From Begonia masoniana (taxonomy: Eukaryota; Streptophyta; Magnoliopsida; Cucurbitales; Begoniaceae): 64,000 bases of DNA. Position numbers and translations under genes: made by a program. This document shows, piece after piece, positions 11,807-57,108 of this stretch; position 1 is the first letter of the stretch, and every line of letters begins with the position of its first letter. Below the pieces are notes generated by a model. The model saw only the letters and a list, made by a program, of their open reading frames with translations, was not told the origin of the DNA and made no database searches. Location of the stretch: contig CM039508.1 in assembly GCA_022432975.1 (NCBI GenBank), forward strand, positions 28,523,008 to 28,587,007. Reading direction: 5' to 3'.

Positions 11807-12401
11807 ACGAACGACACTCGTGGACGGAGCTCGAAGTCCAGCGCGCACAATGTAAGTTCTCGTGACTTGCTCTGGCCGATTGGCCTACACCGTATGTCGA
11901 TGTCGCGTCGAAGAGTTTTAGTGAATTGTTTGTTTAATTTGCTTTGGTTGGATAGTTAGGCTAGTTGTTGTATAGGTTATGTTTTTATCGTCTTGATGGT
12001 ACGTATATTGGTTGTTTACTTTATGCATCTAACTGTTCATGCATCACGTCTTTTAAAATAGCATGAAAACGAACTTCTGCACATGTTTAAGAAAATGAAA
12101 TGAATGAACGAAATGAATCTACGTAATCTGTATCTGGTTACGCGAGGTGGGGCTCAGGCACGGCTATTTACGGATGTAAGCGTGTACCCCCCCTGCGTTA
12201 GGTGAAGACGGCAGTCCGACCGCGGGATGTGCTCTCCCCATCTAATAGGCTGAGACCTCGGTGACAATCTGTCTGCGACGTAATGAAAAGAAAATGTTGC
12301 ATGATTTCTTAAACTCATACGCATAACATGCATTGCATTTACGAAACTTGCTGAGTCTTTAGCTCATAGTTGTCTGTATGGTGTAGGTGATATCGAAACA
12401 G
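11807..12401 (+). promoter_or_regulatory. Putative spliced-leader segment of the Gypsy-A LTR
   Basis: Block 1 (11807-11851, 45 nt) follows TTTGCCTCAG and is followed by GTAAGT. CCTACACC lies at 11884-11891, just after GGCCGATTGG. Its complement GGTGTAGG is at 12380-12387 and contains the AG that precedes block 2 (12387-12401, 15 nt, ending ACAG), which is followed by GTGAGG. The same arrangement is seen in the other gypsy LTRs of this window. Splicing is inferred from the signals only. Confidence 0.5.
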
Positions 12402-20453: not shown

Positions 20454-20749
20454 GCCATATCTGAAACAAGCATTCCAGCTATGTTTCTGCATAGCTCCAA
20501 CTTCTTTCGAGTTTGTAACGACCCCAGAGGGATCTTCACATAATCCGTATCTTTCTTAATCATTTAATTCTTATTACTCACACTCTATTCATTTTTGGTA
20601 ATATATATTTTTGAAACATAACTTAGCTCAAGATGTCATGCGCGATTCACTAGGCATCGCTCAGCAAAGAAATACATTACACATCTGCCGGCGGGCAGTG
20701 CAATGTGTATCAGCTGATGAAGAGAAACTTAAACCCTTAGACTGCATCT

Positions 20750-21370
20750 ACCGATAGAAGAATAAACCACATCTACCGGTCACTAGACGACAAAACAATG
20801 TTTATATCATCCGGTAACTTAAATGCACTTCATCTGCCGATCGCTAGACGACAAAACTGTACTTACATCTTCCGATAGCTTAAACACTCTACATCTACCG
20901 GTCGCTAGACGACAAATCTATACTTACATGTTCCGATAGCTTAAACACTCTACATCTATCGGTCACTGGACAATGAAATATCGCTTACATCATTTGGTAA
21001 CTTAAACACTCTACATCTACCAGTCACTGGGCGATGAAATAACACTTACATCATCCGGTAACTTAAATACACTTCATCTGCCGATCACTAGACGACAAAA
21101 TTAAACATACATCTTCCGATGACTTAAACACTCTACATCTACCGGTCGCTAGACGACAAAACTATACTTACATCTTCCGATAGCTTAAACACTCTACATC
21201 TACCGGTCGCTAGACGACAAAACTATACTTACATCTTCCGATGTAAACACTCTACATCTACTGGTCACTGGACAATGAAATATCGCTTACATCATTTGGT
21301 AACTTAAATACACTTCATCTGCCGATCACTAGATGACAAAATAGCACTCTCATCATCCGATAGCTTAACC
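20750..21370 (-). repeat. Diverged 122-bp-type minisatellite in the solo LTR
   Basis: Variants of catctaccggtcactagacgac and ttacatcttccgatagctt alternate. They are related to the homogeneous 122-bp array at 26291-26849 but are more diverged and irregular. Confidence 0.8.
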
Positions 21371-22185
21371 TTCACTGATTTCAAACTTCAATGGTGTAAC
21401 ATTCATACTAATGAAAATCAGTAACTCATCCAGAATTCATATAGCGGAAGACTTAAGCAAACAGACCATCCAACTATCCTTAAAATTATTTCTAGATTCA
21501 GTGGTCAACAGACAACTTCAAAAGAGGACTCAATGTTAGAAAGAAATAAACTTGTCCTACTTAATCTATTATATTCATTATCATAACTAAAACCATAAAA
21601 AACATTAACCAGGGGTCTCATTTGCCATCCAGCCACAGAAATTGCACCCTGATCACCTTCCAGCAACCAAGCTCAGACATCATCATAAACTTTGGGATCC
21701 TCACCTGAAATCTCGTCACCTACATCATAAGGTTTAAACTATAAGCCTAATGCTTAGTAAGGAATGCAATACTAACAAGTATGCATGAATGCTCATTTGA
21801 GAAACAAATGCTCATGAATCTTTTCTTATTCGTAATTATACACAAAATCTCCATTCTTATTCATCATTCATATTCATCATTCATATTCATCATTCGTATT
21901 CCTCAATCATATTCCTCGTTCATGTTGTGTGAATTAAGAGAGGATTTGTGCCGGTAAAGGGGGTTGACAGTGAGAGTGTACATAATCCCTTGCGAGTCGT
22001 AATCATGGTCCTTTCTTTTGGACAGTGACATACGTCAAACCGCTCCCAACCCTCACTTAATTCACGTTGCATAAGATTTACTTCATTATCTTACTTTATT
22101 CATGAGGAAACCATGCTCTTAAAACATTTTCATATGCATAAAATAGTCATGATGCATGTACATGGGAATTCTTAAATCATCAAGC

Positions 22186-22691
22186 TACAATTCATCATTC
22201 ATATTCATCATTCATATTCATCATTCATATTCATCATTCATATTCATCATTCATATTCATCATTCATATTCATCATTCATATTCATCATTCATATTCATC
22301 ATTCATATTCATCATTCATATTCATCATTCATATTCATCATTCATATTCATCATTCATATTCATCATTCATATTCATCATTCATATTCATCATTCATATT
22401 CATCATTCATATTCATCATTCATATTCATCATTCATATTCATCATTCATATTCATCATTCATATTCATCATTCATATTCATCATTCATATTCATCATTCA
22501 TATTCATCATTCATATTCATCATTCATATTCATCATTCATATTCATCATTCATATTCATCATTCATATTCATCATTCATATTCATCATTCATATTCATCA
22601 TTCATATTCATCATTCATATTCATCATTCATATTCATCATTCATATTCATCATTCATATTCATCATTCATATTCATCATTCATATTCATCT
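22186..22691. repeat. 13-bp tandem array, about 39 copies
   Basis: The unit is attcatattcatc, almost without variation over about 500 bp. Because 13 is not a multiple of 3 and the unit lacks stops, it creates a false 205-codon frame. The Gypsy-B LTRs carry only a few diverged copies (27285-27380, 34345-34455). Confidence 0.98.
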
Positions 22692-23866
22692 CATTCCATT
22701 ATTCATCATTCGTATTCCTCAATCATATTCCTCGTTCATGTTGTGTGAATTAAGAGAGGATTTGTGCCGGTAAAGGGGGTTGACAGTGAGAGTGTACATA
22801 ATCCCTTGCGAGTCGTAATCATGGTCCTTTCTTTTGGACAGTGACATACGTCAAACCGCTCCCAACCCTCACTTAATTCACGTTGCATAAGATTTACTTC
22901 ATTATCTTACTTTATTCATGAGGAAACCATGCTCTTAAAACATTTTCATATGCATAAAATAGTCATGATGCATGTACATGGGAATTCTTAAATCATCAAG
23001 CTACAAAACAGAGCACTATCCAACATGGAACCTTACCATTGAACTAATCATCAACATAAATGCTAGTCAGTAACATAAGGAACTACTAATCATCGTATGA
23101 GTTTCTACCTAGCATCCTTTGATGTAGGGTCCTAAAGACCGAGAAACCTATACTTTCACTTACCTGGTCTCCTTAGCAATTTGAGCTACTTTCTCTTCAA
23201 ACTTCTTCACCTAAAACATTTACATTGCAGTAGTTAAAACAAAATCCTATTAGTTCTAATCACAAGTCATCCTAGGATCTAATAGCTATAGTCACTCCCG
23301 AATCCTTAGTATAGTTCTCTGTGCAGTTTGAAATCCAAAATCCAAAACAGACAGATTCGATTAGCGATAACTCAGGGTTGGTTGCTTAATGTCCAAAATC
23401 GATTCGGAATGACATTACCACTTTCAGATTTTAAAATACCCTTACTAATACTCGGCCATCGAAGAATCCAGAACTTCAACACATAGCTAAAAACAGAGCT
23501 TAACGACTAAAAGATAGCTACATTGCCAAACTCGTACCTCGAGCACAAAGTAGCCGAGAAGCAGCAAGGAAACCAATCGTCGAAGGAGGGATTTCCAGCT
23601 GACAGAGAGCGAGAGCTCGGGAGGGGAAATCTCCGAGAGTAAGAGATGACGGCTACAGTGGTTTAAATGAGGTTTGAATCCTTTCCTTTTTCTTTAAATA
23701 CTGGTCTCAATCCTCCATTATTACAACTTTGCCACTCAACCTAGTTTAAATCCACATGTAATTAATTAAGCTTGGCACAAAACTCTAAACCGTGAAGATT
23801 GAATATTCATGACCGTTAATACATTTAGGAAGTCACCTGGTTGAAGTTGTCGGGTGTTACAGAGTT

Positions 23867-26290: not shown

Positions 26291-26849
26291 AATGAAATAA
26301 CACTTACATCATCTGGTAACTTAAATACACCTCATCTGCCGATCACTAGACGATAAAATTAAACTTACATCTTCCGATGGCTTAAACACTCTACATCTAC
26401 CGGTCACTGGGCGATGAAATAACACTTACATCATCCGGTAACTTAAATACACCTCATCTGCCGATCACTAGACGACAAAATTAAACTTACATCTTCCGAT
26501 GACTTAAACACTCTACATCTACCGATCACTGGATGATGAAATAATACTTACATCATCCGGTAACTTAAATACACCTCATCTGCCGATCACTAGACGACAA
26601 AATTAAACTTACATCTTCCGATGGCTTAAACACTCTACATCTACCGGTCACTGGGCGATGAAATAACACTTACATCATCCGGTAACTTAAATACACCTCA
26701 TCTGCCGATCACTAGACGACAAAATTAAACTTACATCTTCCGATGGCTTAAACACTCTACATCTACCGGTCACTGGGCGATGAAATAACACTTACATCAT
26801 CCGGTAACTTAAATACACCTCATCTGCCGATCACTAGACGACAAAATTA
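26291..26849. repeat. 122-bp minisatellite, about 4.6 copies
   Basis: acgacaaaattaaacttaca recurs at exact 122-bp steps (about 26355, 26477, 26599, 26721, 26843). The unit pairs two half-similar segments (tctaccggtcactgggcgat and tctgccgatcactagacgac). Confidence 0.95.
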
Positions 26850-28510
26850 AACTTCTTCACCTAAAACATTTACATTGCAGTAGTTAAAATAAAATTCTAT
26901 TAGCGAGCCTTAAAATTAATTTTTTCAGATTCAGGTCAACAGACAACTTCAAAAAGAGGGACTAATGTTAGAAAGAAATAGGCTTGTCCTACTTAATCTA
27001 TGATATTCATTATCGTAACTAAAACCATAAAAACATTAACCAGGGGTCTCATTTGCCATCCAGCCACAGAAATTGCACCCTGATCACCTTCCAGCAACCA
27101 AGCTCAGACATCATCATAGACTTTGGGATCCTCACCAGAAATCTCGTCACCTACATCATAAAGTTTAAACTATAAGCCTAATGCTTAGTAGATGCAATAC
27201 TAACAAGTATGCATGGAATGCTCATTTGAGAAACAAATGCTCATGATCTTTCTTATTTGTATTATACACAAAATCTCCATTCTTATTCATCATTCATATG
27301 CGAACAATCAATATTGCATCCGTATTCGTCATTCATATTCATCATTCGTATTCATCATTCGTATTCGTCAATCATATTCCTTATTCATGTTGTGTGAATT
27401 AAGAGAGGATTTGTGCCGGTAAAGGGGGTTGACAGTAAGAGTGTACATAATCCCTTGCGGGTCGTAATCATGGTCCTTCCTTTTGGACAGTGACATATGT
27501 CAAACCGCCCCCAACCCTCACTTAATTCACGTTGCATAAGATTTACTTCGTTATCTTACTTTATTCATGAGAAAATCCTGCTCTTAAAATATTTTCATAT
27601 GCATAAAATAGTCATGATGCATGTACATGGAAATTCTTAAATCATCAAGTTACAGAACAGAGCACTATCCAACATGGAACCTTACCATTGAACTAATCAT
27701 CAACATAAATGCTAGTCAGTAACATAAGGAACTACTAATCATCGTATGAGTTTCTACCTAGCGTCCTTTGATGTAGGGTCCTAATAACCGAGAAACCTAT
27801 ACATTCACTTACCCGGTCTCCTTAGCAATTTGAGCTCCTTTCCCTTCAAACTTCTTCACCTAAAACATTTACATTGCAGTAGTTAAAATAAAATTCTATT
27901 AGTTCTAATCACAAGTCATCCTAGGATCTAATAGCTATAGTCACTCCCGAATCCTTAGTATAGTTCTCTGTGCAGTTTGAAATCCAAAACCCAAAACAGA
28001 CAGATTCAATTAGCGATAACTCATGGTTGGTTGTTTAATGTCCAAAATCGATTCGGAATGACATTACCACTTTCAGATTTTAAAATACCCTTACTAATAC
28101 TCGGCCATTGAAGAATCCAGAACTTCAACACATAGCTGAAAACAGAGCTTAACGACTAAAAGATAGCTACATTGCCAAACTCGTACCTCGAGCACAAAGT
28201 AGCCGAGAAACAGAAAGGAAACCGATCGTCGAAGGAGGGATTTCCAGCTGACAGAGAGCGAGAGCTCGAGAGGGGAAATCGCTGAGAGTAAGAGATGACG
28301 GCTACAGTGGTTTAAATGAGGTTTGAATCCTTTCCTTTTTCTTTAAATACTGGTCTCAATCCTCCATTATTACAACTTTGCCACTCAACCTAATTTAAAT
28401 CCACATGTAATTAATTAAGCTTGGCACAAAACTCTAAACCGTGAAGATTGAATATTCATGACCGTTAATACAGTTAGGAAGTCACCTGGTTGAAGTTGTC
28501 GGGTGTTACA
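26291..28510 (-). repeat. Gypsy-B 3' LTR, truncated at its outer end
   Basis: It matches 33137-35579 but starts inside the 122-bp minisatellite, so the terminal ~400 bp with the CA end are gone. Leader signals on the minus strand: 47-nt exon-like block 27859-27813, then CCTACATC (27777-27770) and its complement at 27157-27150, then a 15-nt block 27150-27136. The TATA-like box is CAGTATTTAAAG near 28360-28340. Confidence 0.9.
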
Positions 28511-33136: not shown

Positions 33137-35579
33137 TGTAACGACCCCAGAGGGATCGTCACATAATCCGTATCTTTCTTAATCATTTAATTCTTATTAC
33201 TCACACTCTATTCATTTTTGGTAATATATATATATATATATTTTGAAACATAACTTAGCTCAAGATGTCATGCACGATTCACTAGGCATCGCTCAGCAAA
33301 GGAATATATTACGCATCTGCCGGCAGGCAGTGCAACGCGTATCGGCTGATGAAGAGAAACTTAAACCCTTAGACTGCATATACCGATAGAGAAATAAACC
33401 ACATCTACCGGTCACTAAACCGGGTTTATATCATCCGATGAACATGTGCTTCTCACGTGAATAATTAAAACATGACCCGGTCACTAAACGACAAGATAAC
33501 CCTCACATCATCCGGTAACTAGACGACAAAATTAAACTTACATCTTCCGATGGCTTAAACACTCTACATCTACCGGTCACTGGGCGATGAAATAACACTT
33601 ACATCATCTGGTAACTTAAATACACCTCATCTGCCGATCACTAGACGACAAAATTAAACTTACATCTTCTGATGGCTTAAACACTCTACATCTACCGGTC
33701 ACTGGGCGATGAAATAACACTTACATCATCTGGTAACTTAAATACACCTCATCTGCCGATCACTAGACGACAAAATTAAACTTACATCTTCCGATGATTT
33801 AAACACTCTACATCTACCGATCACTGGACGATGAAATAACACTTACATCATCGGGTAACTTAACCTTCACTGATTTCAAACTTCAATGGTATAACATTCA
33901 TACTAATGAAAATCAGTAACTCATCCAGAATTCATATAGCGGAAGACTTAAGCAAACATACCATCCAACTATCCTTAAAATTATTTCTAGATTCAGTGGT
34001 CAACAGACAACTTCAAAAGAGGACTCAATGTTAGAAAGAAATAGACTTGTCCTACTTAATCTATTATATTCATTATCATAACTAAAACCATAAAAACATT
34101 AACCAGGGGTCTCATTTGCCATCCAGCCACAGAAATTGCACCCTGATTAACTTCCAGCAACCAAGCTCAGACATCATCATAGACTTTGGGATCCTCACCT
34201 GAAATCTCGTCATCTACATCATAAGGTTTAAACTATAAGCGTAATACTTAGTAAGGAATGCAATACTAACAAGTATGCATGAATGCTCATTTGAAAAACA
34301 AATGCTCATGAATCTTTTCTTATTTGTAATTATACACAAAATCTCCATTCTTATTCATCATTCATATTCAACAATCATATTCATCATTCGTATTCATCAT
34401 TCATATTCATTATTCGTATTCATCATTCGTATTCGTCAATCATATTCCTCATTCATGTTGTGTGAATTAAGAGAGGATTTGTGCCGGTAAAGGGGGTTGA
34501 CAGTGAGAGTGTACATAATCCCTTGCGGGTCGTAATCATGGTCCTTCCTTTTGGACAGTGACATACGTCAAACCGCCCCCAACCCTTACTTAATTCACGT
34601 TGCATAAGATTTACTTCGTTATCTTACTTTATTCAAGAGAAAACCCTGCTCTTAAAATATTTTCATATGCATAAAATAGTCATGATGCATGTACATGGGA
34701 ATTCTTAAATCATCAAGCTACAGAACAGAGCACTATCCAATATGGAACCTTACCATTGAACTAGTCATCAACATAAATGCTAGTCAGTAACATAAGGAAC
34801 TACTAATCATCGTATGAGTTTCTACCTAGCGTCCTTTGATGTAGGGTCCTAATGACCGAGAAACCTATACATTCACTTACCTGGTCTCCTTAGCAATTTG
34901 AGCTCCTTTCCCTTCAAACTTCTTCACCTAAAACATTTACATTGCAGTAGTTAAAACAAAATCCTATTAGTTCTAATCACAAGTCATCCTAGGATCTAAT
35001 AGCTATAGTCACTCCCGAATCCTTAGTATAGTTCTCTGTGCAGTTTGAAATCCAAAACCCAAAACAGACAGATTCGATTAGCGATAACTCAGGGTTGGTT
35101 GTTTAATGTCCAAAATCGATTCGGAATGACATTACCACTTTCAGATTTTAAAATACCCTTACTAATAATCGGTCATTGAAGAATCCAGAACTTCAACACA
35201 TAGCTGAAAACAGAGCTTAACGACTAAAAGATAGCTACATTCCCAAACTCGTACCTCGAGCAAAAAGTAACCAAGAAGCAGTAAGGAAACTGATCGTCGA
35301 AGGAGGGATTTCCAGCTGACAGAGAGCGAGAGCTCGAGAGGGGAAATCGCCGAGAGTAAGAGATGACGGCTACAGTGGTTTAAATGAGGTTTGAATCCTT
35401 TCCTTTTTCTTTAAATACTAGGTCTCAATCCTCCATTATTACAACTTTGCCACTCAACCTAGTTTAAATCCACATGTAATTAATTAAGCTTGGCACAAAA
35501 CTCTAAACTGTGAAGATTGAATATTCATGACCGTTAATACAGTTAGGAAGTCACCTGGTTGAAGTTGTCGGGTGTTACA
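33137..35579 (-). repeat. Gypsy-B 5' LTR, 2443 bp
   Basis: Plus strand runs from TGTAACGACC to GGTGTTACA. It contains a short (TA)n run at 33224-33240, the 122-bp-type repeats (33520-33860), a few attcat repeats (34345-34455) and the leader signals. The downstream stem arm is GATGTAGG (plus, 34838-34845). The other arm has decayed to TCTACATC near 34213. Confidence 0.93.
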
Positions 35580-39916: not shown

Positions 39917-40647
39917 TATAACGCCCCCGAACCCGCCCCGGCTCGGTGCGCTATTTTGCTAACCTATCCCGCGTTTAAAACGCAATTAAAAATAAGTTTC
40001 GTAAATTTTTCCCGAGCCAAACACCTCCAAAAATCATGAAATTTTAACCACACATTCCCGACACCCAAATCTTCAAGTCCCGTAAAAATTTTAGTAAACC
40101 GACTTAAAACGGCTGAAGACAAAAATAGAGAACGTAACCCGACGTTAATTATTTTAAAACCAAAAATCGACAATATAACGGCTAAATTTTCTACAACCGA
40201 AAACCTAAAAAAAAACCAACATTTACACCAGTATAAATTCACAAGTATTTACACTAAACAACTCTCCCAAAATCAGCCATAAAATCTCAAAATCTCAACT
40301 ACAAACCACAACCCGAAATCTAACTAAACTTAAGCAAATACAAATCCCACATACATCTCGAAGACCATGGTCAAGACACCCCGACAACTGCCCCCACCGG
40401 CACGCCCCGTGCATCTCTTACTGCTCCCAAGTCCTGGCTCACTCACTTATCTCACCTGTAACCGCGTCGCTACCTACACCACAGAACACGCACACACACG
40501 TAAGCTTACGCTTAGCAAGTAGAGGACAACAAGTACAAACATACATTATGCACACACAACTCTCACACAATCCTAACACATGCCGTTCCACCCCAAATAT
40601 CTTTTGTAGCAAATCCACTCACAACATCTTACATATACTCAGTCAGG

Positions 40648-42740
40648 TGCCTCTTGCAGAACCTCCCGAAGTTTGCCATATTTCAGACATTACTTCGCGA
40701 CGAGGAACCACTGCATATCTTTTGTGGAAACCTCCCGAAGCTTGCCATATTTCAGACATTACTTCGCGACGAGGAACCACTGCATATCTTTTGTGGAAAC
40801 CTCCCGAATCTTGCCATATTTCAGACACTACTTCGAGACGAGGAACCACTGCATATCTTTTGTAGAAACCTTCCGAAGCTTGCCATATTTCAGACACTAC
40901 TTCGCGACGAGGAACCACTGCATATCTTTTGTGGAACCTCCCGAAGCTTGCCATATTTCAGACACTACTTCGCGACGAGGACCACTGCATATCTTTTGTG
41001 GAAACCTCCCGAAGCTTGCCATATTTCAGACACTACTTCGCGACGAGGAACCACTGCATATCTTTTGTGGAAACCTCCCGAAGCTTGCCATATTTCAGAT
41101 ACTACTTCGCGACGAGGAACCACTGCATATCTTTTGTGGAAACCTCCCGAAGCTTGCCATATTTCAGACACTACTTCGCGACGAGGAACCACTGCATATC
41201 TTTTATGGAAACCTCCCGAAGCTTGCCATATTTCAGACACTACTTCGCGACGAGGAACCACTGCATATCTTTTGTGGAAACCTCCCGAAGTTTGCCATAT
41301 TTCAGACATTACTTCGCGACGAGGAACCACTGCATATCTTTTGTGGAAACCTCCCGAAGCTTGCCATATTTCAGACATTACTTCGCGACGAGGAACCACT
41401 GCATATCTTTTGTAGAAACCTTCCGAAGCTTGCCATATTTCAGACACTACTTCGCGACGAGGACCACTGCATATCTTTTGTAGAAACCTTCCGAAGCTTG
41501 CCATATTTCAGACACTACTTCGCGACGAGGAACCACTGCATATCTTTTGTGGAAACCTCCCGAAGCTTGCCATATTTCAGACACTACTTCGCGACGAGGA
41601 ACCACTGCATATCTTTTGTGGAAACCTCCCGAAGCTTGCCATATTTCAGACACTACTTCGCGACGAGGAACCACTGCATATCTTTTGTGGAAACCTCCCG
41701 AAGCTTGCCATATTTCAGACACTACTTCGCGACGAGGAACCACTGCATATCTTTTGTGGAAACCTCCCGAAGCTTGCCATATTTCAGACACTACTTCGCG
41801 ACGAGGAACCACTGCATATCTTTTGTAGAAACCTTCCGAAGCTTGCCATATTTCAGACATTACTTCGCGACGAGGACCACTGCATATCTTTTGTGGAAAC
41901 CTCCCGAAGCTTGCCATATTTCAGACATTACTTCGCGACGAGGAACCACTGCATATCTTTTGTGGAAATCTCTCGAAGTTTGCCATATTTCAGACATTAC
42001 TTCGCGACGAGGAACCACTGCATATCTTTTGTGGAAACCTCCCGAAGCTTGCCATATTTCAGACACTACTTCGCGACGAGGAACCACTGCATATCTTTTG
42101 TGGAAACCTCCCGAAGCTTGCCATATTTCAGACATTACTTCGCGACGAGGAACCACTGCATATCTTTTGTGGAAACCTCCCGAAGCTTGCCATATTTCAG
42201 ACACTACTTCGCGACGAGGAACCGCTCCATATCTTTTGTGGAAACCTCCCGAATCTTGCCATATTTCAGACACTACTTCGCGACGAGGAACCACTGCATA
42301 TCTTTTGTGGAAACCTCCCGAAGCTTGCCATATTTCAGACATTACTTCGCGACGAGGACCACTGCATATCTTTTGTGGAAACCTCCCGAAGCTTGCCATA
42401 TTTCAGACATTACTTCGCGACGAGGAACCACTGCATATCTTTTGTGGAAACCTCCCGAAGCTTGCCATATTTCAGACACTACTTCGCGACGAGGACCACT
42501 GCATATCTTTTGTGGAAACCTCCCGAAGCTTGCCATATTTCAGACACTACTTCGCGACGAGGAACCACTGCATATCTTTTGTGGAAACCTCCCGAATCTT
42601 GCCATATTTCAGACACTACTTCGCGACGAGGAACCACTGCATATCTTTTGTGGAAACCTCCCGAAGCTTGCCATATTTCAGACATTACTTCGCGACGAGG
42701 AACCACTGCATATCTTTTGTGGAAACCTCCCGAAGCTTGC
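40648..42740. repeat. 69-bp satellite, about 30 copies
   Basis: Each unit contains cgaagcttgccatatttcag and cacttcgcgacgaggaacca or close variants. Since 69 is 23 codons and the unit lacks stops in several frames, long false frames appear on both strands (up to 709 codons). Copies with a one-base deletion (cgaggaccac) occur at about 40979, 41462, 41875, 42356 and 42494. The first four are spaced near six or seven units, suggesting higher-order duplication. Confidence 0.98.
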
Positions 42741-43710
42741 CAAAACCATGCTTAACCACAACCAAACATTTAAAACCATGCTTAACCAAACAAAACATTT
42801 AAAACCATACTTAACCAAACATTCAAGCAACCAAATCAGAACAAAGCAACCAAACAAGCAAACAATCTCAAACACTAACAATAACAACCCAGCAATTCAT
42901 CAAACAATACTCAAACACTAACAATACACTATCAAACAATAAATCCTACCGTTCTGTGGTGTAGGCCCAAAGGCAACAAACACATGTCTACTACTTACCT
43001 GAACTCCCGCACGTATTGGCTCACTCCGAGTATACAATTCACTCGCTCGTTAACCTAGCACATTAATGGAAAAATCACTTAAAATCACCAAAACATAAAC
43101 TAAAAGATATTTACTAAATTTATCACACAACCAAAATAACTTTTCAAAATAAAAACCCCAACACCTGATTTTTAGACAATTTTGACCGTCCAACTTCAAA
43201 CGGTCATAACTTTCTCGTTTTTCAACGGATTTTGACGTGCCACCCCAATTCGGAAACCTCTACATGTCTACTATCCATTTAAATACTCAAATCAACCAAA
43301 CAAACACCTTGACCAACCCGAAAATACCAAAGACAGATTCGGCTATTGAGTGTTCACAACCGGTTTTTGTGTAACACTTCTCCAATCTTCATTTTAACTC
43401 CATAACCACCTAACCCAATTCATCCAACAACTAAACTATCAGATTTGGAAAGAAAACAAGAATCTAAACTCAATTTTCGGACTTCACTATTTAGGGTTTT
43501 CAAACCCTACACAATCTTCACCAAAACTATCCTAAAACCTCTAAAAACAACCCCTTAAGGTATAAAACTAAAAACCCCACTAATTTACTTCAAAATACCT
43601 TGAAAACTCTTGATGAGATGAAGCTTTGGAGGGGCTTCAATGGCAGAAAGAAATTCGTGAATGGCAAGAGGAAGAAGAGAGTGTTTTTGATATTTTATCC
43701 TTCACTTTCT

Positions 43711-43724
43711 TTTATTTATAAAAC
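43711..43724 (-). promoter_or_regulatory. TATA-like box of the 39917-44160 solo LTR
   Basis: Minus strand TTTTATAAATAAA lies about 435 bp after the LTR start and upstream of the leader signals, as expected for the LTR promoter. It is not experimentally supported. Confidence 0.5.
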
Positions 43725-44165
43725 AATTTCTTTTACTTTTACTTTTCCACCACACATTTGTTTAAAATTTGAATTTAACCCTCCCTTAAACTCCATTGAT
43801 TTCCAACGTGATTGGCTACTCCTTTCACTCATTTTCTTCCAATTTTTTATTTCATTAAATGATAAGTTTCTATTGGTTAAATTAATTTGACTTTTCAAAG
43901 TGTTTTGGTTTGAATTGTCAAACCATTTCTCTTCTACTTTCCAACGTGATCTAACTCTCCCACTCACCACCTTTTGACTTTATAATTGTCTCTTATTGGT
44001 TCATGCATGTTTTGACTTTTCAAACCATGAAATTTGCAATTCTCTTCCTTTGTTCTTTTGACTTGTCAAACCACTTATTCACTTTGCATGTTTCTAAACC
44101 TTAAGTCACATACTTAGCATACCCTAAGTTACGCACGTTAGGAAAATTCCGGGTGTTACACCCTC

Positions 44166-46570: not shown

Positions 46571-49500
46571 GGTTTCCTTGATGCAAAATTCTTCTGTAAG
46601 GAAACTTTGTGTTGTTTTCCTGCGAAACAATGAACACAACTTGACAGAGGTTCATTTCTGAGATGTGAAAAACAACCTCTTTTGTTAAGCAATTGAAGTT
46701 CCTTTTCGCTCATGTGACCAAGCCGTTTGTGCCATAACTCAATGGATGAGTCATTTTGTGCAGCATTTACTGATGCTTCCTTCACAGTCACTTGCGTCAC
46801 ATACAAGCTAGACTCTTTGATCCCTTTCGCTATGATTAGCGAACATTTGTTGAGCTCCCATTTACCGCCAGCAAATTTGCTCTTGTAGCCAGCTTCATCA
46901 AGAGCACCAATTGATATTAGATTTAGTCTAATAACCGGAACATGTCTAACATCTTTAAGCACCAACTTACATCCTGTGTTAGTCTGGATACAGATGTCTC
47001 ATTTTCTAATTATTTTGGAAACGTGACTGTTCTCCATTTTCACAATGCCAAAATCACCATCGGTGTAAGATGAAAAATACTCCATTTTTGAAGTAACATG
47101 GTAAGATGCTCCAGAGTCACACACCCAACATGATTCATTCATCGGAAGGTTGACAACATCTTCGCATACAATCATATCTTCACCCTCAGAGACAGCTCCA
47201 GTCGCATTCTTCATTTCTTCTTTAGCACCTCCTGTGCCTTGTTCTTTCTTCAGTTTCCAGCAATCCTTTTTCATGTGGGCCGTCTTGCCACAATGATAGC
47301 ACTTGACGCCCAGTTTCCTTGATGCAAAATTCTTCTGTAAGGAAACTTTGTGTTGTTTTCCTGCGAAACAATGAACACAACTTGACAGAGGTTCATTTCT
47401 GAGATGTGAAAAACAACCTCTTTTGTTAAGCAATTGAAGTTCCTTTTCGCTCATGTGACCAAGCCGTTTGTGCCATAACTCAATGGATGAGTCATTTTGT
47501 GCAGCATTTACTGATGCTTCCTTCACAGTCACTTGCGTCACATACAAGCTAGACTCTTTGATCCCTTTCGCTATAATTAGCGAACCTTTGCTGAGCTCCC
47601 ATTTACCGCCAGCAAATTTGCTCTTGTAGCCAGCTTCATCAAGAGCACCAATTGATATTAGATTTAGTCTAATATCCGGAACATGTCTAACATCTTTAAG
47701 CACCAACTTACATCCTGTGTTAGTCTGGATACAGATGTCTCATTTTCCAATTATTTTGGAAACGTGACTGTTCTCCATTTTCACAATGCCAAAATCACCA
47801 TCGGTGTAAGATGAAAAATACTCCATTTTTTAAGTAACATGGTAAGATGCTCCAGAGTCACACACCCAACATGATTCATTCATCGTAAGGTTGACAACAT
47901 CTTCGCATACAATCATATCTTCACCCTCAGAGACAGCTCCAGTCGCATTCTTCATTTCTTCTTTAGCACCTTCTGTGCCTTGTTCTTTCTTCAGTTTCCA
48001 GCAATCCTTTTTCATGTGGGCCGTCTTGCCACAATGATAGCACTTGACGCCCAGTTTCCTTGATGCAAAATTCTTCTGTAAGGAAACTTTGTGTTGTTTT
48101 CCTGCGAAACAATGAACACAACTTGACAGAGGTTCATTTCTGAGATGTGAAAAACAACCTCTTTTGTTAAGCAATTGAAGTTCCTTTTCGCTCATGTGAC
48201 CAAGCCGTTTGTGCCATAACTCAATGGATGAGTCATTTTGTGCAGCATTTACTGATGCTTCCTTCACAGTCACTTGCGTCACATACAAGCTAGACTCTTT
48301 GATCCCTTTCGCTATAATTAGCGAACCTTTGCTGAGCTCCCATTTACCGCCAGCAAATTTGCTCTTGTAGCCAGCTTCATCAAGAGCACCAATTGATATT
48401 AGATTTAGTCTAATATCCGGAACATGTCTAACATCTTTAAGCACCAACTTACATCCTGTGTTAGTCTGGATACAGATGTCTCATTTTCCAATTATTTTGG
48501 AAACGTGACTGTTCTCCATTTTCACAATGCCAAAATCACCATCGGTGTAAGATGAAAAATACTCCATTTTTTAAGTAACATGGTAAGATGCTCCAGAGTC
48601 ACACACCCAACATGATTCATTCATCGTAAGGTTGACAACATCTTCGCATACAATCATATCTTCACCCTCAGAGACAGCTCCAGTCGCATTCTTCATTTCT
48701 TCTTTAGCACCTTCTGTGCCTTGTTCTTTCTTCAGTTTCCAGCAATCCTTTTTCATGTGGGCCGTCTTGCCACAATGATAGCACTTGACGCCCAGTTTCC
48801 TTGATGCAGAATTCTTCTGAAAGGAAACTCTGTGTTGTTTTCCTGCGAAACAATGAACACAACTTGACAGAGGTTCATTTCTGAGATGTGAAAAACAACC
48901 TCTTTTGTTAAGCAATTGAAGTTCCTTTTCGCTCATGTGACCAAGCCGTTTGTGCCATAACTCAATGGATGAGTCATTTTGTGCAGCATTTACTGATGCT
49001 TCCTTCACAGTCACTTGCGTCACATACAAGCTAGACTCTTTGATCCCTTTCGCTATAATTAGCGAACCTTTGCTGAGCTCCCATTTACCGCCAGCAAATT
49101 TGCTCTTGTAGCCAGCTTCATCAAGAGCACCAATTGATATTAGATTTAGTCTAATAACCGGAACATGTCTAACATCTTTAAGCACCAACTTACATCCTGT
49201 GTTAGTCTGGATACAGATGTCTCATTTTCTAATTATTTTGGAAACGTGACTGTTCTCCATTTTCACAATGCCAAAATCACCATCGGTGTAAGATGAAAAA
49301 TACTCCATTTTTGAAGTAACATGGTAAGATGCTCCAGAGTCACACACCCAACATGATTCATTCATCGGAAGGTTGACAACATCTTCGCATACAATCATAT
49401 CTTCACCCTCAGAGACAGCTCCAGTCGCATTCTTCATTTCTTCTTTAGCACCACCTGTGCCTTGTTCTTTCTTCAGTTTCCAGCAATCCTTTTTCATGTG

Positions 49501-50275
49501 GGCCGTCTTGCCACAATGATAGCACTTGACGCCCAGTTTCCTTGATGCAGAATTCTTCTGAAAGGAAACTCTGTGTTGTTTTCCTGTCAAACAATGAACA
49601 CAACTTGACAGAGGTTCATTTCTGAGATGTGAAAAACAACCTCTTTTGTTAAGCAATTGAAGTTCCTTTTCGCTCATGTGACCAAGCCGTTTGTGCCATA
49701 ACTCAATGGATGAGTCATTTTGTGCAGCATTTACTGATGCTTCCTTCACAGTCACTTGCGTCACATACAAGTTAGACTCTTTGATCCCTTTCGCTATAAT
49801 TAGCGAACCTTTGCTGAGCTCCCATTTACTGCCAGCAAATTTGCTCTTGTAGCCAGCTTCATCAAGAGCACCAATTGATATTAGATTTAGTCTAATATCC
49901 GGAACATGTCTAACATCTTTAAGCACCAACTCACGTCCTGTGTTGGTCTGGATACAGATGTCTCATTTTCCAATTATTTTGGAAACGTGACTGTTCCCCA
50001 TTTTCACAATGCCAAAATCACCACCGGTGTAAGATGAAAAATACTCCATTTTTTAAGTAACATGGTAAGATGCTCCAGAGTCACACACCCAACATGATTC
50101 ATTCATCGTAAGGTTGACAACATCTTCGCATACAATCACATCTTCACCTTCAGAGACAGCTCCAGTCGCATTCTTCATTTCTTCTTTAGCACCTTCTGTG
50201 CCTTGTTCTTTCTTCAGTTTTCAGCAATCCTTTTTCATGTGGCCCGTCTTGCCACAATGATAGCACTTGACGCCC
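46571..50275 (-). repeat. Five exact 741-bp tandem copies of a zinc-knuckle, protease, pre-integrase module
   Basis: The span is 3705 bp, exactly 5 x 741. Boundaries are 50275-49535, 49534-48794, 48793-48053, 48052-47312 and 47311-46571. Each unit, 247 codons, encodes GVKCYHCGKT.HMKKDC, then SCWVCDSGASYHVT, then LVLKDVRHVP, LWHKRLGHMSEKELQLLNKR and SCVHC..GKQH. Each joins the next in frame (ASRK-LGVKCYHC). Every unit carries a TGA after HVSKII.K, and three (the first, third and fourth) carry a second stop, VT*KMEY. Units come in two main haplotypes. Confidence 0.95.
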
Positions 50276-50936
50276 GTTTTACTTCTCGATTTAGATCTTC
50301 CTGATGTACTGGCTCTAGTGGCCCCACGTTCCATTGATCTCCCTCTTGTTACTTATAAAGCATCCATAGAGGATTGCTCCTGGTTTTTCCGCCTACTTTC
50401 TTCGTCAAGAACGGCGGCTGCAATATCATTGAACATCAATGTAGTTTTTGTACTACCATTGAGTAGATTTATGATGAGGTGATCGTATGAATTTGGCAAA
50501 CTTTGAAGTAAAAGTTCAGCTCTTTCATTTTCGTCGATTTTGTGCTCCATTGCTGTAAGTTGAGAAAATAATGTATTTAGAGTATTGACGTGGTCTTCAC
50601 TGTTGTAGATTCTGACATCCAAAGGGTATATAATTTCCTTTTCAAGAAAATTTTATTATACCACGACTTCTTTTCGTACAATTTTATCAGCGTATCCCAG
50701 ATCTGTTTTGCCGTTACCATTTCTGAGATACTTGACAAAATTCCATCTGCTAAAATGAGATGCAAAATGGTCATTGCATCCTCATCAGCTTTATTCCATT
50801 TCTCATCTTCAACGTTCATAGGTCTGTCGCCGATGGCCATAGTACAACCATCTCTCCGCAATAGCGCCTTCATTTTTAATTTCCACAGAGAGAAATTATT
50901 GTCGTTAAATTTTTCAATTTCAATCTTTCCTGCCAT
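50276..50936 (-). pseudogene. Copia-4 gag N-terminal region
   Basis: ATG at 50936 starts MAGKIEIEKFNDNNFSLWKL, a Tork/Tnt1-type gag (KMKALLRRDGCTMAI, ADEDAMTILHLILADGILSS). A frameshift near 50610-50640 moves the continuation (NTLFSQLTAMEHKIDENERA, LLLQSLPNSYDHLIINL) to another frame ending at 50353. A basic Ser/Arg linker then leads into the first zinc knuckle of the array. Confidence 0.9.
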
Positions 50937-51336: not shown

Positions 51337-53629
51337 TGTAACACCCGGCTTTACGGGATTTGAATTATTCCAATATAAATGGTATTTTTGTAAATACGTC
51401 AAATTAAATCCGTTTTGCGAACGAAAATTTTTAATGAAGCCATAATAATAAGTTAGAATTTTGGGAGAAATATGAAAATTTGGAGAAAACGAATCATTGG
51501 ATAAATAACGAAATTGGTGGAGAAACAAATAGAGAGTTAATGGAGGGGCAAATTGGTAATTGCACAAAAAATTTTTAATTAAAATTAACAAATCCCTCAT
51601 TTCTTTCCCCCTCACTCACGCAATTCCCATTTTCCCTCTCCCTCAAGACGATTTTCTTCCCTCCCCTCGCGCGTTTCTTCTCCGATGACTGAAGCATCCT
51701 CCGATCGACTTCGGTTCCTCGCGATTTCTTCTCCAAACGTTACTCTAGGTATGAATCTATGGTTTTGGTACGTTAGATTTCAATTTTTAGGGTTTAAAAC
51801 GATTAGGGTTTGTTAGGGTTTTTGTTAAAAACGTGGATTGATGTTTAAAATTGATAGATTTAGCGTAGTTATGCCTTTAATCGACGTATTGATGTTTATT
51901 GAGCGTAGATAATCGATTTATCGATTAATATTGGAGTTGCGTTTGGTTTGGAGCATGAAAAAAACTCCATTGAAGGAAATTTCTAAGTGTTGAGTACAAA
52001 TTGCTCGATAAAATGCCGTAATGAGCTAGAATAGAGTTTTAAGAAAGTTCCTTTAGCTCGGAGTTAGTAGTTTTCGAGATGTAAGGTTTAGACTCGATTT
52101 AATCGCGATTTGTTGTGAATTGCTTTAGGTGAACAGTGTTCGTGGACGGAGCGTGAATTTCGATGAACGCGAGGTAAGTCTCTGTGATTTGTTTGGCCGA
52201 TTGGCCTACACCATAAGACTATGTCGATCGAGGAATTGGAGATGTTTGTTGTGCTGGGTAATTAGAACGGGTAGTTAGTTAGTTTGGTTTGGTTAGGTTG
52301 TTAATTGTTAAATTTTTTGTTGTGTGTTTCTATTTGTTTCTATTTCGTTCACGACATAATATTTGTTCACGCATCATCGTTTTCAAAAAGGCACGAAAAA
52401 GAATTTCGATGCATGTTTTACAAAACGAAAAGGTAAACGAATGTAATGATGGTCACGTCGGTGGCGGTGGTTCAGACATGGCTGTCAGGTGAAGCATGTC
52501 TTCCCCCCGGTTAGATACGAGGGGCTATCCAATCGCCGGATGTTCCGCTCCTATCTAGCGAGAGAGAAGCCCCGGCGACGTAAGTGAAATGATTAGCGAA
52601 AAGGTAGGACGCATGATTTATGAACTGTACATGCATAGCATTGGCATTCACGTGCATTCACTTAGATTTACTGAGCCTCTAGCTCACATGTTTAATTCTA
52701 TGGTGTAGGTGATTTTGAGACAGGTAAGGAAGACGTCCCTCTGCCTGAAGTATGAGCACGTTGAAGAAGGATGGCCCGTGGGAGTGCGCTGGCAGTTGGT
52801 GCGTAATTTTGACCCATGGGGACGTAGGTAAACGTTTTGGGAATTGATAGATAGAATATAGGAAATTGTATAGTTAAACATTTTAGGATGTTTGGATCTG
52901 GATAGATAATATATAGTGTTTTTGGAAAATTGAAAGTATTTTGTAATGTTTTGATATTTTCAAACATGAGGAAATGTTAAACTTTTAAACGGAACCACGC
53001 GGTTCATTTTTATGAAATTTGGTTATATTTTAAATGAGTTTTGAGTCGGTGAACGGGTGATAGGTAGCGAGTGAAATGTATGTGGGTGGTAGTGTTATTG
53101 TGTAGAAGTTTTTATGAAATGTTAGTGGTGATTTGATGAGGAAAAAGGGTGAAGTTTATGTGAGTTGTGTGTAGGGTAACGATGAAAAGGGTGAAGGAAG
53201 AAAAAGAAAAAGGAAGGGGATGAAAGTTCTCTGGAATTTCATATTCTAGAGGACTTGGCGATCGATCGCCAGGGAGAACGATCGATCGCCCCTCTTGGTC
53301 ACGCTCTGGAAGAAATTCCAGAGCGTGTGTCGAGTGATCGCCTGGAGAAGCGATCGCTGGGCAAAAAATTGGCGATCGTCCCCTTACATTTCGGGACAAT
53401 GTCCCTTTTTGCCCTCCGCTTTAATTTTAATTGTTTAAAATGATTTTAATAGTTATATTTCAATTGTTTAGTATTTGTTTTAAGTATTGTTTAAATAGTT
53501 TAACAACTTAGATTTAATTGATTTTTCAAACAATGTTAACTATTTTTATTTTAGTTAAGTTCCGCTTAAACTGTAATTAAAATAAAAAATTTATACGATA
53601 AAATTAGGATACGGGTAAGGGTCGTTACA
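51337..53629 (+). mobile_element. Solo LTR of the Gypsy-A type, 2293 bp
   Basis: TGTAACACCCGG to GGGTCGTTACA with a perfect TCACC duplication (51332-51336, 53630-53634). Its structure parallels the Gypsy-A LTR: leader-like pyrimidine block (51600-51750), exon-like blocks 52129-52173 (45 nt) and 52709-52723 (15 nt). Stem arms are CCTACACCATA (52205-52215) and TATGGTGTAGG (52699-52709). The GCGATCG module (53225-53390) holds a perfect hairpin, arms CACGCTCTGGAA and TTCCAGAGCGTG. Confidence 0.92.
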
Positions 53630-54604: not shown

Positions 54605-55452
54605 GAAGAAGGAAAAGTTTTAAATTCCACTCAAGCCACTGTAGCCGACACACTTCCTTCCACGATTTCTTCACTCTCCAGAGCTCTCTCTCAGCCGGCG
54701 ACTTCTTCACCAACGAACGATTTCTCCAGTATTCACTCCGAAAACCCACGTTCGAGGTAAGGTTCAGACAATGTAGTTGTTGAGTAGTTATTTAGAGTCA
54801 TGTTTTCAGCTAGAAACCCGAAGTCCCGATTCTGTATTGACAGAGTAATAATAGGAACATTGTTAACCTTAATTTGATAATAGTATTACCGATTCGAATC
54901 TGAACTTTGACAACCGACTGTAAGTAGCTGCTAGGTTGAATCTGAATGTCCGAAGTTTCGGAGCTTAAACCGCGCACACAAGGTGCTTGGCGGAAAGGAC
55001 TAAGAAATACAGATTTTAGGATGACATTTAGTTAGGACCTTACTAGTTTTCAGTTTTAAGTTATTTAGGATTTTATTCTAACTACGAATATGAAATGTCA
55101 TAGGCGAGGAAAGCTTAAGTGAAGGTGCTGCTCAGCTAAGGAATCCAGGTAAGTGGATGTATTAAGATTTCCGGCCATTAGGGCCCTACACCGCAAGGAT
55201 ACTAGGAAAATTTGTTGAAATGTTTGTCTGATGATTTTGACTAGTAGTTTGCTATGATAAGAAGTATTTGAGCAGGAAAAATGTTAAGTTACATGATGTT
55301 TTTACTTGTTTAAACAGTATGACATTCCTCTGTGAAATTCGCGTCCATGCGCTATGAGCTTGTTCATGATTGAGTTAAGAACATGAAGAACCAATGTAAG
55401 CATGATTAAGTGCAGAACGGGGGAAATGGCTATGATATGTTCACAAGGCTCA

Positions 55453-55735
55453 TGAATGGCTCGCGAATTCTCCCACTGGTGGAGGCCGAGTTGATGATAT
55501 GTATGGCTCGCGAATTCTCCCACTGGTGGAGGCCGAGTTGAAGATTAGTATGGCTCGCGAATTCTCCCACTGGAGGAAGCCGAGTTGATGTTAAGTACGG
55601 TTCGCGAATTCTTCCGCTGGTGGAGACCGGATTGGCAGGAAAACTCGCGAATCCTCACCCTGGTGGAGGCCGAGCTAATACTGTACGATCGTTCGCGAAT
55701 TCTCCCACTGGAGGAGGCCGAGCTAGTCGTTACTA
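55453..55735 (+). repeat. 47-bp minisatellite, six copies
   Basis: Units share cgcgaattctcccactgg and tggaggccgag with drift in the spacer. It lies between the two stem arms of this LTR. Confidence 0.93.
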
Positions 55736-57108
55736 TGATTGCCCGATTGGCAATTGATTATGTACCCCTGTCTTTCTCCCTCGTTTCCTGCCTTAATACA
55801 TGCTATGTAAATGATGAAAATGTGTATGAATGAAGAAAGATTTACGAACTTATGTTTCTTTAATTTGTACACTCATGTATGTTTGTCAGTATGCATTCAT
55901 TACTAAGCATTAGGCTTATAGTTAAATCTTATGGTGTAGGTGAAGAATTTACAGGTGAGGATACCAAGTTTCATGAAGAAGTTTAAGATCGGTAGCTGGA
56001 GGTTGCTCAGTGTGACAGTCAAGGCTGGATAGGCGACTAAACTCCCTGGTTATGCTCATAGTAAGTTAGAAAAGTTTACCACGAACAGATGATTAAATAG
56101 AACAGAATTTCTTATAACAATGAGGTATAGATTTGAAGAGTTTGTCTTTAGAGTCTGAATACGATTTTAAGGATTTATGGATGATTTGCTTCGTTTGAGT
56201 CTTCCGCTATGCGTATTTTAGATGAGTTTATGATTTCTACTCTTTGGTGAGTTGTGATATGTTCTATCGAATGAAGATATTTAATGGCTATAGTGTTTTA
56301 CTGCCATATGATAGAAGCTGGATGAGATAACTATCCGGCTGACGTCATCGGCGGGTATCAATAGAAGAGAGTTAAGAGATTGAGTCTTCCGGATGACGTC
56401 ACCGTAAGATGTAGTATATTTCCTTCACCGGATGATGTACGTACTATCTTGTCGTTTAGCGATCGGCAGATGTAGCGTGATATAGTCACCGGATGATCTG
56501 AGGAGTCTTTTACCGGATGATATAAACATGGTTTTGTCGTCTAGTGACCGGAGGATGTAGAGTATTTTCCTCGGATGATGAAAAATGTTATTTTGGCATC
56601 TAGTGACCGGTGGAGAAAGTGTTGTTATTCACCGGATGATGTAGACGATGTTTGTCGTTTAGTGACCGGGTGAGATTTTAAAGAGTCACGTGTTTGTCTC
56701 GTGTCCACCGGTGGATGCCCCCTACTGGGCAATGTTTTAATTGAGCATGTGAAACCCACGTGCCCACCGGAAGATGTCTTCTATTAGGCTATGATAAGTG
56801 AGTCACGCGGAGTACATGTGACAAATCGGATGGGCACACCCTGCCAGCCGATGCATGCAAATCCATGCAAACCCGAGTAGAATCACGTCAAATGATTTGA
56901 GGACATTTCTCCCTATCCGATTATGTTTTGGAGCTGACAATTGAACTTAATCGACTGACTTTGTCGATGAGTGAATTTTAGAAATATGAAGGAGTCAAGT
57001 TTAAGTTTTAAAAAAAAGTACCAATAATGAATAGGGTGTGGAAATTAAGAAGTAAATGATTATGAATGTCATGTTATGTGGTGATCCCATCGGGGTCGTT
57101 ACACTCTG

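What the first reader, a model, noticed from the sequence alone, without database searches (positions are those of the whole stretch)
40456..43054. A co-varying long-range stem brackets the tandem array in gypsy LTRs of five lineages
In the 39917-44160 LTR, CCTACACCACAGAAC follows a donor-like GTAAGT. Its perfect 15-nt complement (40473-40487 with 42951-42965) lies 2.5 kb away across the satellite. The homologous arms elsewhere are different sequences that still pair. 51337 LTR: CCTACACCATA with TATGGTGTAGG (52205-52215, 52699-52709). Gypsy-A: CCTACACC with GGTGTAGG (11884, 12380). 54437 LTR: 55185 with 55933. Gypsy-B family: CCTACATC with GATGTAGG (27150 with 27770; 21719 with 23121). Changes in one arm are matched by changes in the other, which argues for a base-paired RNA in the LTR leader. 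I know of no described equivalent.
Basis: partly seen in the sequence, partly recalled or inferred. Interest (0 to 1): 0.88.

Follow-up and report, generated by a model that had tools for sequence, protein, structure and literature searches.

The report
Base-paired clamp around retrotransposon leader intron
In 70 of 72 retrotransposon copies compared from one plant genome, two short sequence arms 0.3 to 2.5 kb apart can pair in at least 7 of 8 core positions, and several changes in one arm are matched in the other, so the RNA would likely fold to bring together the predicted splice sites on either side of a stretch where tandem repeats can grow.

Summary
In element orientation (the 39917-44160 and Gypsy-B LTRs are on the minus strand), the arms of all 8 window LTRs sit inside an intron-like segment. 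A GTAAGT donor lies 31-36 nt upstream of CCTACAYC; the 3' arm lies 14 nt (17 in one) before an acceptor position that reads CAG in 6 of 8; 488-2477 nt lie between. Tandem arrays lie in that loop in 3 of 5 lineages. In the host genome (795 Mb) a pattern that omits the 3' arm has 12,013 hits (control 0). Of 72 copies located by independent 5' and 3' models, 58 keep all 8 core pairs. Own-partner pairing beats 20,000 of 20,000 swaps, and five pair-keeping double changes map to single tree branches (random pairing mean 0.87). Two local hairpins flank the stem, also with matched changes. Best reading: a spliceosomal leader intron clamped by a long-range stem, so its ends likely stay close whatever the array length. 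Splicing itself is not shown: no RNA data, and the genome-wide search for spliced copies did not complete. Closest known: yeast zipper stems and human PCCRs; the position between branch point and acceptor differs.

The parts
39917..44160 (-). solo LTR of the 39917 lineage (TSD CCCTC; + strand starts TATAAC where TGTAAC is expected)
43046..43598 (-). predicted leader intron 1 (donor AAG|GTATTT, weak acceptor ACGAG, both chosen by eye on the alignment); no conserved stem
42999..43045 (-). predicted exon 2, 47 nt
42993..42998 (-). donor 2 GTAAGT, start of predicted intron 2 (42998 down to 40456)
42965..42974 (-). hairpin H1 GCC-TTTG-GGC, sharing one base with the 5' arm
42951..42965 (-). 5' arm CCTACACCACAGAAC (core 42958-42965)
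40660..42742 (-). 69-bp tandem array, about 30 copies, inside the loop of the stem
40501..40514 (-). hairpin H2 TAAGC-GTAA-GCTTA, branch-point-like
40473..40487 (-). 3' arm GTTCTGTGGTGTAGG (core 40473-40480)
40456..40458 (-). predicted acceptor CAG| of intron 2, 17 nt after the 3' arm
11852..12401 (+). predicted intron 2, Gypsy-A 5' LTR; arms 11884-11891 and 12380-12387; no array in the loop
18690..19239 (+). predicted intron 2, Gypsy-A 3' LTR; arms 18722-18729 and 19218-19225; acceptor reads CAA; no array
52174..52723 (+). predicted intron 2, LTR 51337-53629 (TSD TCACC); arms 52205-52215 and 52699-52709; no array
55149..55954 (+). predicted intron 2, LTR 54437; arms 55185-55192 and 55933-55940; 47-bp array 55452-55722 in the loop
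21705..23163 (-). predicted intron 2, Gypsy-B solo LTR 20514-23861 (TSD GAGTT); arms 23121-23128 and 21719-21726; 13-bp array 22190-22739 in the loop
27136..27812 (-). predicted intron 2, Gypsy-B; arms 27770-27777 and 27150-27157; acceptor reads CTG; 13-bp array 27278-27388
34199..34880 (-). predicted intron 2, Gypsy-B; arms 34838-34845 and 34213-34220 (GATGTAGA, one pair broken); 13-bp array 34346-34456

Best explanation
The arms are complementary sequences with matched changes, predicted to form a long-range RNA stem that likely clamps together the ends of a predicted spliceosomal intron in the LTR leader and loops out whatever lies between, tandem arrays included. Order along the element: TATA-like box, exon 1, intron 1, exon 2 of 45-47 nt, donor GTAAGT, hairpin H1, 5' arm, variable loop with or without an array, branch-point-like hairpin H2, 3' arm, acceptor AG, exon 3. 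Shown by sequence: the complementarity, its matched changes, the near-fixed distances at both ends and the variable middle. Inferred: that the segment is transcribed and spliced, that the stem shortens the effective distance between donor and acceptor, that it hides the AG inside the 3' arm (TGTAG) so that the next AG is used, and that this is why arrays can expand there without harm to the element.
For: Donor-to-5'-arm 31-36 nt and 3'-arm-to-acceptor position 14 nt (17 in one) in 8 of 8 window copies, with 488-2477 nt between. Exon 2 is 45-47 nt in the five lineages examined, and each exon piece has less T than the intron beside it in 5 of 5 (exon 2 11-23%, intron 1 33-39%, intron 2 29-33%). 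In 72 copies AGGTAAGT averages 98.6% identity and the 5' arm 93.4%, against 62-68% for exon 2 and the intron around them; GT in 72 of 72 (the donor was not in the search pattern, but a 5' profile match was required). Core pairs (G-U counted): 8 of 8 in 58, 7 in 12, 6 in 2 of 72; pair 7 is C-G in 47, U-A in 23, U.G in 1, C.A in 1. Native duplex energy -19.74 against -16.24 swapped, 0 of 20,000. Five canonical double changes at true partners, random pairing mean 0.87, 215 of 200,000. Summed mutual information exceeds 400 of 400 tree simulations. L205/L206 pair with other letters: CCTACAATACGGAG with CTCCCTGTTGTAGG, 13 of 14; L194 pairs 15 of 15, differing from the 39917 arm by two double changes. 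H2 reads TAAGC/GCTTA in 34, TGAGC/GCTCA in 33 and TTAGC/GCTAA in L194. Intron 1 has no conserved stem (best offset 30 of 40), a negative control. Distant plant-type contigs L123/L124 keep ACTGAGC..GCTCAC followed by a pyrimidine-rich tract and CAG|G.
Against: No RNA evidence. The genome-wide search for spliced copies did not complete; a shorter junction pattern is absent from the 244 loci in hand, but these were mostly chosen for other features. Six of 8 window copies are not significant alone. Five-lineage swap rank only 7 of 120. RNAalifold on the window arms counts only 2 pairs with both sides changed (one search counts 4 of 13, reached by 38 of 500 shuffles). The summed canonical fraction is only mildly above the tree null (12.72 against 12.05, sd 0.27; largest null 12.86), and pair 15 has high mutual information without pairing, so that null is somewhat lenient. 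On the tree H2's variation is mainly one deep split plus L194. Acceptor and H2 conservation in the genome copies is partly built in by the pattern, and the stretch upstream of H2 is also well conserved (81%). The acceptor reads CAA or CTG in 2 of 8 window copies. L123/L124 show no 3' arm, so the clamp is not general. No branch point was tested.
Confidence: 0.6

Rival explanations
1. The stem is a brake. The 3' arm contains the first well-spaced AG (TGTAG) after the branch-point-like hairpin; pairing would bury it, so splicing is likely slow and enough unspliced genomic RNA remains for reverse transcription, which needs the intron to rebuild the LTR.
For: The AG inside the arm is kept in 69 of 72 copies; in the 20514 LTR it is 22 nt from the branch-point-like A of GCTTA and the CAG 37 nt (counted on the sequence). 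An intron inside an LTR persists only if unspliced RNA is copied (established knowledge of LTR replication).
Against: The arm's AG would be conserved by pairing anyway. A further AG at the acceptor position is present in 70 of 72, but most of these copies were found with a pattern that required it.
Confidence: 0.25
2. The three helices are a packaging or dimerisation signal of the unspliced RNA that happens to lie in the intron.
For: Three compact helices in the leader upstream of the PBS; retroviral signals of this kind lie downstream of the major donor (recalled).
Against: Near-fixed spacing to donor and acceptor at both ends is not needed for packaging.
Confidence: 0.08
3. The arms are inverted binding sites for a DNA-binding protein in the LTR, conserved as DNA.
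For: The 8-nt core is nearly constant and short.
Against: Matched changes outside the core, including largely different extensions in L205/L206 and L194, and G.U states in L196 and L212, point to RNA pairing.
Confidence: 0.04
4. Chance complementarity preserved by common descent.
For: In the window alone most copies are not significant singly and the five-lineage swap is weak.
Against: Offset, swap and tree controls.
Confidence: 0.03

Closest known systems
Yeast intron 'zipper stems' (RPS17B and others; PMC12350175, passages read)
   Same: Stem inside a spliceosomal intron that would bring splice signals together; starts at least 10 nt from the donor (31-36 here).
   Different: A zipper stem joins donor to branch point and ends at least 20 nt from it. 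Here the 3' arm lies after the branch-point-like hairpin, before the AG. Zipper stem regions are only 20-30% conserved between Saccharomyces species; this core is kept in 70 of 72 copies at 7 or more of 8 pairs.
[quoted passage not shown]
   Same: The 3' arm occupies the interval between branch-point-like site and acceptor and covers a nearer AG.
   Different: The partner is not local but 0.3-2.5 kb upstream, beside the donor.
Human pairs of conserved complementary regions, PCCRs (PMC8052449, passages read)
   Same: Long-range complementary intron segments, enriched near splice sites and over cryptic sites.
   Different: Found in human protein-coding genes; the passages I saw report no tie to a mobile element or to tandem arrays.
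Spliced RNAs of plant LTR retrotransposons: Ogre, EVADE, sunflower Tyran and Varan (PMC12786077, PMC6317226, PMC7730604; passages read)
   Same: Plant LTR elements with spliced and unspliced RNAs.
   Different: [quoted passage not shown] the review says plant LTR elements generally lack introns. Here predicted introns lie inside the LTR leader.
Sirevirus LTR motifs (PMC2829016, passages read)
   Same: Conserved inverted motifs in non-coding parts of plant LTR elements.
   Different: Local palindromes upstream of the TATA box and an inverted repeat at the PPT, not a long-range pair.

Membership tests
Spliceosomal (U2-type) intron | GT donor with extended consensus | tested here: met
   GTAAGT in 8 of 8 window copies; GT in 72 of 72
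Spliceosomal (U2-type) intron | AG acceptor preceded by a branch point | tested here: inconclusive
   CAG in 6 of 8 window copies; AG 70 of 72 but mostly ascertained; branch point by resemblance only, consensus recalled
Spliceosomal (U2-type) intron | intron richer in T than adjoining exons | tested here: met
   5 of 5 lineages at each of the four exon-intron contacts, by small margins at exon 1
Spliceosomal (U2-type) intron | removed from RNA | not testable with these tools
   no RNA data; spliced-copy genome search unanswered (and repeats to 129)
Yeast zipper stem | stem starts at least 10 nt after the donor | tested here: met
   31-36 nt; definition
[quoted passage not shown]
   the 3' arm lies downstream of the best branch-point candidates and 14-17 nt before the acceptor; rests on where the branch point is
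Conserved structured RNA | compensatory changes beyond relatedness | tested here: met
   (with the leniency noted there); R-scape itself not available
Recursive-splicing ratchet point (YAG|GTRAG, recalled) | GTRAG directly after the acceptor is conserved | tested here: not met
   L163 (ATAG|ATGAG) and L167-L169 (ACAG|GTTAG) lack it; the pattern required it, so its frequency is unknown
Tekay/Del chromovirus | Ty3/gypsy RT, RNase H, integrase and PBS TGGTATCAGAGC | tested here: met
   Pfam RVT_1, RNase H, Integrase_H2C2 and SH3_Tf2-1 above cut-off, rve below its cut-off; PBS after the 5' LTR; that this PBS is initiator-Met is recalled
Tekay/Del chromovirus | C-terminal chromodomain | tested here: inconclusive
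   no PF00385 hit in the window ORFs; a 71%-identical relative, P0004, has it

The most novel reading that the evidence does not exclude
A plant retrotransposon superfamily carries, in thousands of LTRs, a conserved three-helix intron clamp that ties donor to acceptor regardless of what lies between. This frees the looped-out segment from length selection, making it a cradle in which different satellite arrays are born and amplified, and spreads them with each transposition.
Probability: 0.4. Interest if true: 0.86.

Novelty: new variant of a known kind. Interest (0 to 1): 0.72.

Why it matters
It would be a long-range intron structure backed by many natural variants, in a plant, in a place (the LTR) for which my searches found no reported intron. 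It gives a testable reason why tandem arrays accumulate at one spot of an LTR, and a system to measure how an intron stem affects splicing, because lineages supply natural compensatory mutants.

Tried and rejected
Reverse-transcriptase scans of viral contigs found no relatives. The first scan of genome contigs found none; the second found 41 loci, a few of them plant-type contigs in bacterial assemblies, of which L121, L123 and L124 were informative for the LTR. L152 was read too and showed no clear H2 or arms. Rfam: no match in the window at gathering scores. A microexon between TATAG and the acceptor, or a ratchet site at the acceptor, was considered: dropped because that TATAG is missing in two lineages and GTRAG is missing in some copies. 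A stem in intron 1: none. A stem in L123/L124: the longest match is 9 nt, at the donor itself, not the clamp. Paper searches: (introns in LTRs) gave one lentiviral-vector paper; none; in the listings I saw nothing on introns or long-range stems in LTR leaders. Directed search for copies with other letters at pair 7: not completed.

Rows dropped: of 94 3'-site and 85 5'-site hits, 81 pairs were formed, 72 after merging identical arms. 3' sites for which no 5' site was found include L188, L203, L209, the minus sites of L194 and L215, and L219; L211 was cut short by my own fetch and fetched again as L226. L205/L206 were missed by the models and added by hand, as one row, to only.
Full report
What was checked. 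Every arm listed in the finding is in the window at the stated place. Target-site duplications define three solo LTRs: CCCTC for 39917-44160, TCACC for 51337-53629, GAGTT for 20514-23861. Gypsy-A has two LTRs (5' LTR to 13407, followed by TGGTATCAGAGC, a typical PBS by recall); Gypsy-B runs on the minus strand with RT, RNase H and integrase domains. The 39917 LTR is also on the minus strand. In element orientation all eight copies show the same order (the third Gypsy-B copy's 3' arm, one pair broken, was found).

Anatomy. Aligned LTRs read like a multi-exon leader: a TATA-like box, an exon-like stretch, a donor AG|GTA, a segment of 327-553 nt, an acceptor, a 45-47 nt exon-like piece, then GTAAGT (splice sites of intron 1 were chosen by eye). 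The 5' arm begins 31-36 nt after this second donor in all eight copies, and the 3' arm ends 14 nt (17 in the 39917 LTR) before the acceptor position, which reads CAG in six, CAA and CTG in one each; between the arms lie 488-2477 nt. The arrays inside differ in unit: 69 bp in 39917, 13 bp in Gypsy-B, 47 bp in 54437; Gypsy-A and 51337 have none there.

Pairing in the window. The core is 8 bp, extended to 11 in 51337 and 15 in 39917. Over 21,300 relative offsets the arm register and its one-base shift reach 40 of 40 canonical pairs; the best unrelated offset reaches 29. In seven distinct rows 93.4% of cells over 13 pairs are canonical, against 34-51% when slid by 1-3 columns; four pairs have a change on both sides (38 of 500 shuffles reach that) and the covariation score is reached by 4 of 500; RNAalifold counts two such pairs. 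Against this, single copies are mostly not significant and a five-lineage swap test ranks the native set 7th of 120. The window alone was suggestive, not decisive.

The host genome. The genome search answered 2 of 46 requests. The 39917 arm 15-mer occurs 2850 + 2752 times (control 1 and 0). A pattern for H2 and acceptor that leaves the 3' arm free occurs 12,013 times (control 0); reading the roughly 100 places listed by eye, all but about 14 hold GRTGTAGG exactly. I located 5' and 3' sites with two independent profiles and obtained 72 distinct pairs (8 window, 64 genome). The eight core pairs are all canonical in 58, seven in 12, six in 2. Pair 7 is C-G in 47, U-A in 23, with one U.G and one C.A. 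Some lineages pair with other letters: L205/L206 CCTACAATACGGAG with CTCCCTGTTGTAGG, 13 of 14; L194 CCTACATCACAAAAC with GTTTTGTGATGTAGG, 15 of 15; L189 extension ACAAAA with TTTTGT, though one of its core pairs is broken.

Tests. Duplex energy averages -19.74 for 66 native combinations (65 from the 72 plus L205) and -16.24 when partners are swapped; 0 of 20,000 shuffles reach the native value. Taking one per arm cluster (7 clusters, four of them single) native is better in 5000 of 5000 draws. On a tree from flanking columns, five branches carry double changes that keep the pair at true partners; random column pairing gives 0.87 on average and reaches five in 215 of 200,000. Against columns simulated on the tree, summed mutual information is 1.67 against 0.64 (sd 0.20; 0 of 400). 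The summed canonical fraction is less striking (12.72 against 12.05, sd 0.27, largest null 12.86), and pair 15 shows mutual information without pairing, so this null is a little lenient. Near-identical neighbouring copies that look young (L179/L180, 11 mismatches in 2805 aligned positions, plus 32 gap positions) keep the stem (L179; L180 shows the same arms).

Conservation. Over the 72 copies the donor AGGTAAGT averages 98.6% and the 5' arm 93.4%, the 3' arm 94.1%, H2 83%, the stretch upstream of H2 81%, against 68% in exon 2, 62% in the intron beside the 5' arm, 62% in exon 3, and 46% between the 3' arm and the acceptor. Donor and 5' arm were not in the pattern; H2 and acceptor were.

Two more helices. 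Just upstream of the 3' arm, H2 pairs as TAAGC/GCTTA in 34 and TGAGC/GCTCA in 33 copies, with four other matches, one of them unpaired, and TTAGC/GCTAA in L194; on the tree this is mainly one deep split plus L194. It contains branch-point-like sequence (ACTRAG and GCTYAY; the consensus is recalled). Just before the 5' arm, H1 pairs as GGCC/GGCC, GGTC/GACC, GGCT/AGCC or GCC-TTCG-GGC; 4 of 72 copies have none by my rule, and 4% of scores from shuffled flanks reach the observed mean score. Plant-type contigs L123 and L124 keep H2 and an acceptor with a pyrimidine-rich tract but no 3' arm. So the acceptor may be older than the clamp.

How it most likely works. The conserved signals at near-fixed distance from the arms and the variable middle fit an intron whose ends are held together by the stem. 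Complementarity and coevolution are shown; transcription, splicing, the branch point and the effect of the stem are inferred. In this position the stem would shorten the donor-acceptor path and cover the AG in TGTAG, so the following AG is likely used. The main rival is that the same pairing slows splicing so that genomic RNA keeps the intron.

Known relatives. [quoted passage not shown] here the 3' arm lies after the branch-point-like hairpin, so membership fails on that feature although the working principle may be alike. Human PCCRs are long-range intron pairs near splice sites (passages). A 2025 review states that plant LTR elements generally lack introns, naming Ogre and EVADE as exceptions (passages); a 2019 survey mentions only the Ogre intron in the passages found; sunflower elements Tyran and Varan also have spliced isoforms, while Tekay elements were absent from that expressed set (passages). 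I found no report of introns or long-range stems inside LTR leaders with the searches, which cover open-access papers only.

Noticed in passing
46572-50284: A 741-bp unit of copia gag-pol coding sequence is repeated about five times head to tail at 96-99% identity.
   Followed up: no
62844-64000: A 54-bp array with about 63% similarity to the 56320-56560 part of the 54437 LTR; perhaps another LTR of that lineage on the minus strand, cut by the window end.
   Followed up: no
20769-21368, 26292-26854, 33518-33863, 56398-56669: A second, 61-bp type of array lies downstream of predicted exon 3 in Gypsy-B and, as a similar stretch, in the 54437 lineage, outside the clamp loop.
   Followed up: partly
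L123:6224-6243: In a distant relative the first leader donor itself can form a perfect 6-bp hairpin (GTAAGG-loop-CCTTAC).
   Followed up: no
L121, L122, L123, L124: Plant-type Ty3/gypsy elements sit as contigs in assemblies labelled Mycobacterium, Streptomyces, Geminicoccus and Solirubrobacter, probably contamination.
   Followed up: partly
L163, L167, L168, L169: In relatives of the 39917 LTR the stretch just before the 3' arm is a TG repeat.
   Followed up: no
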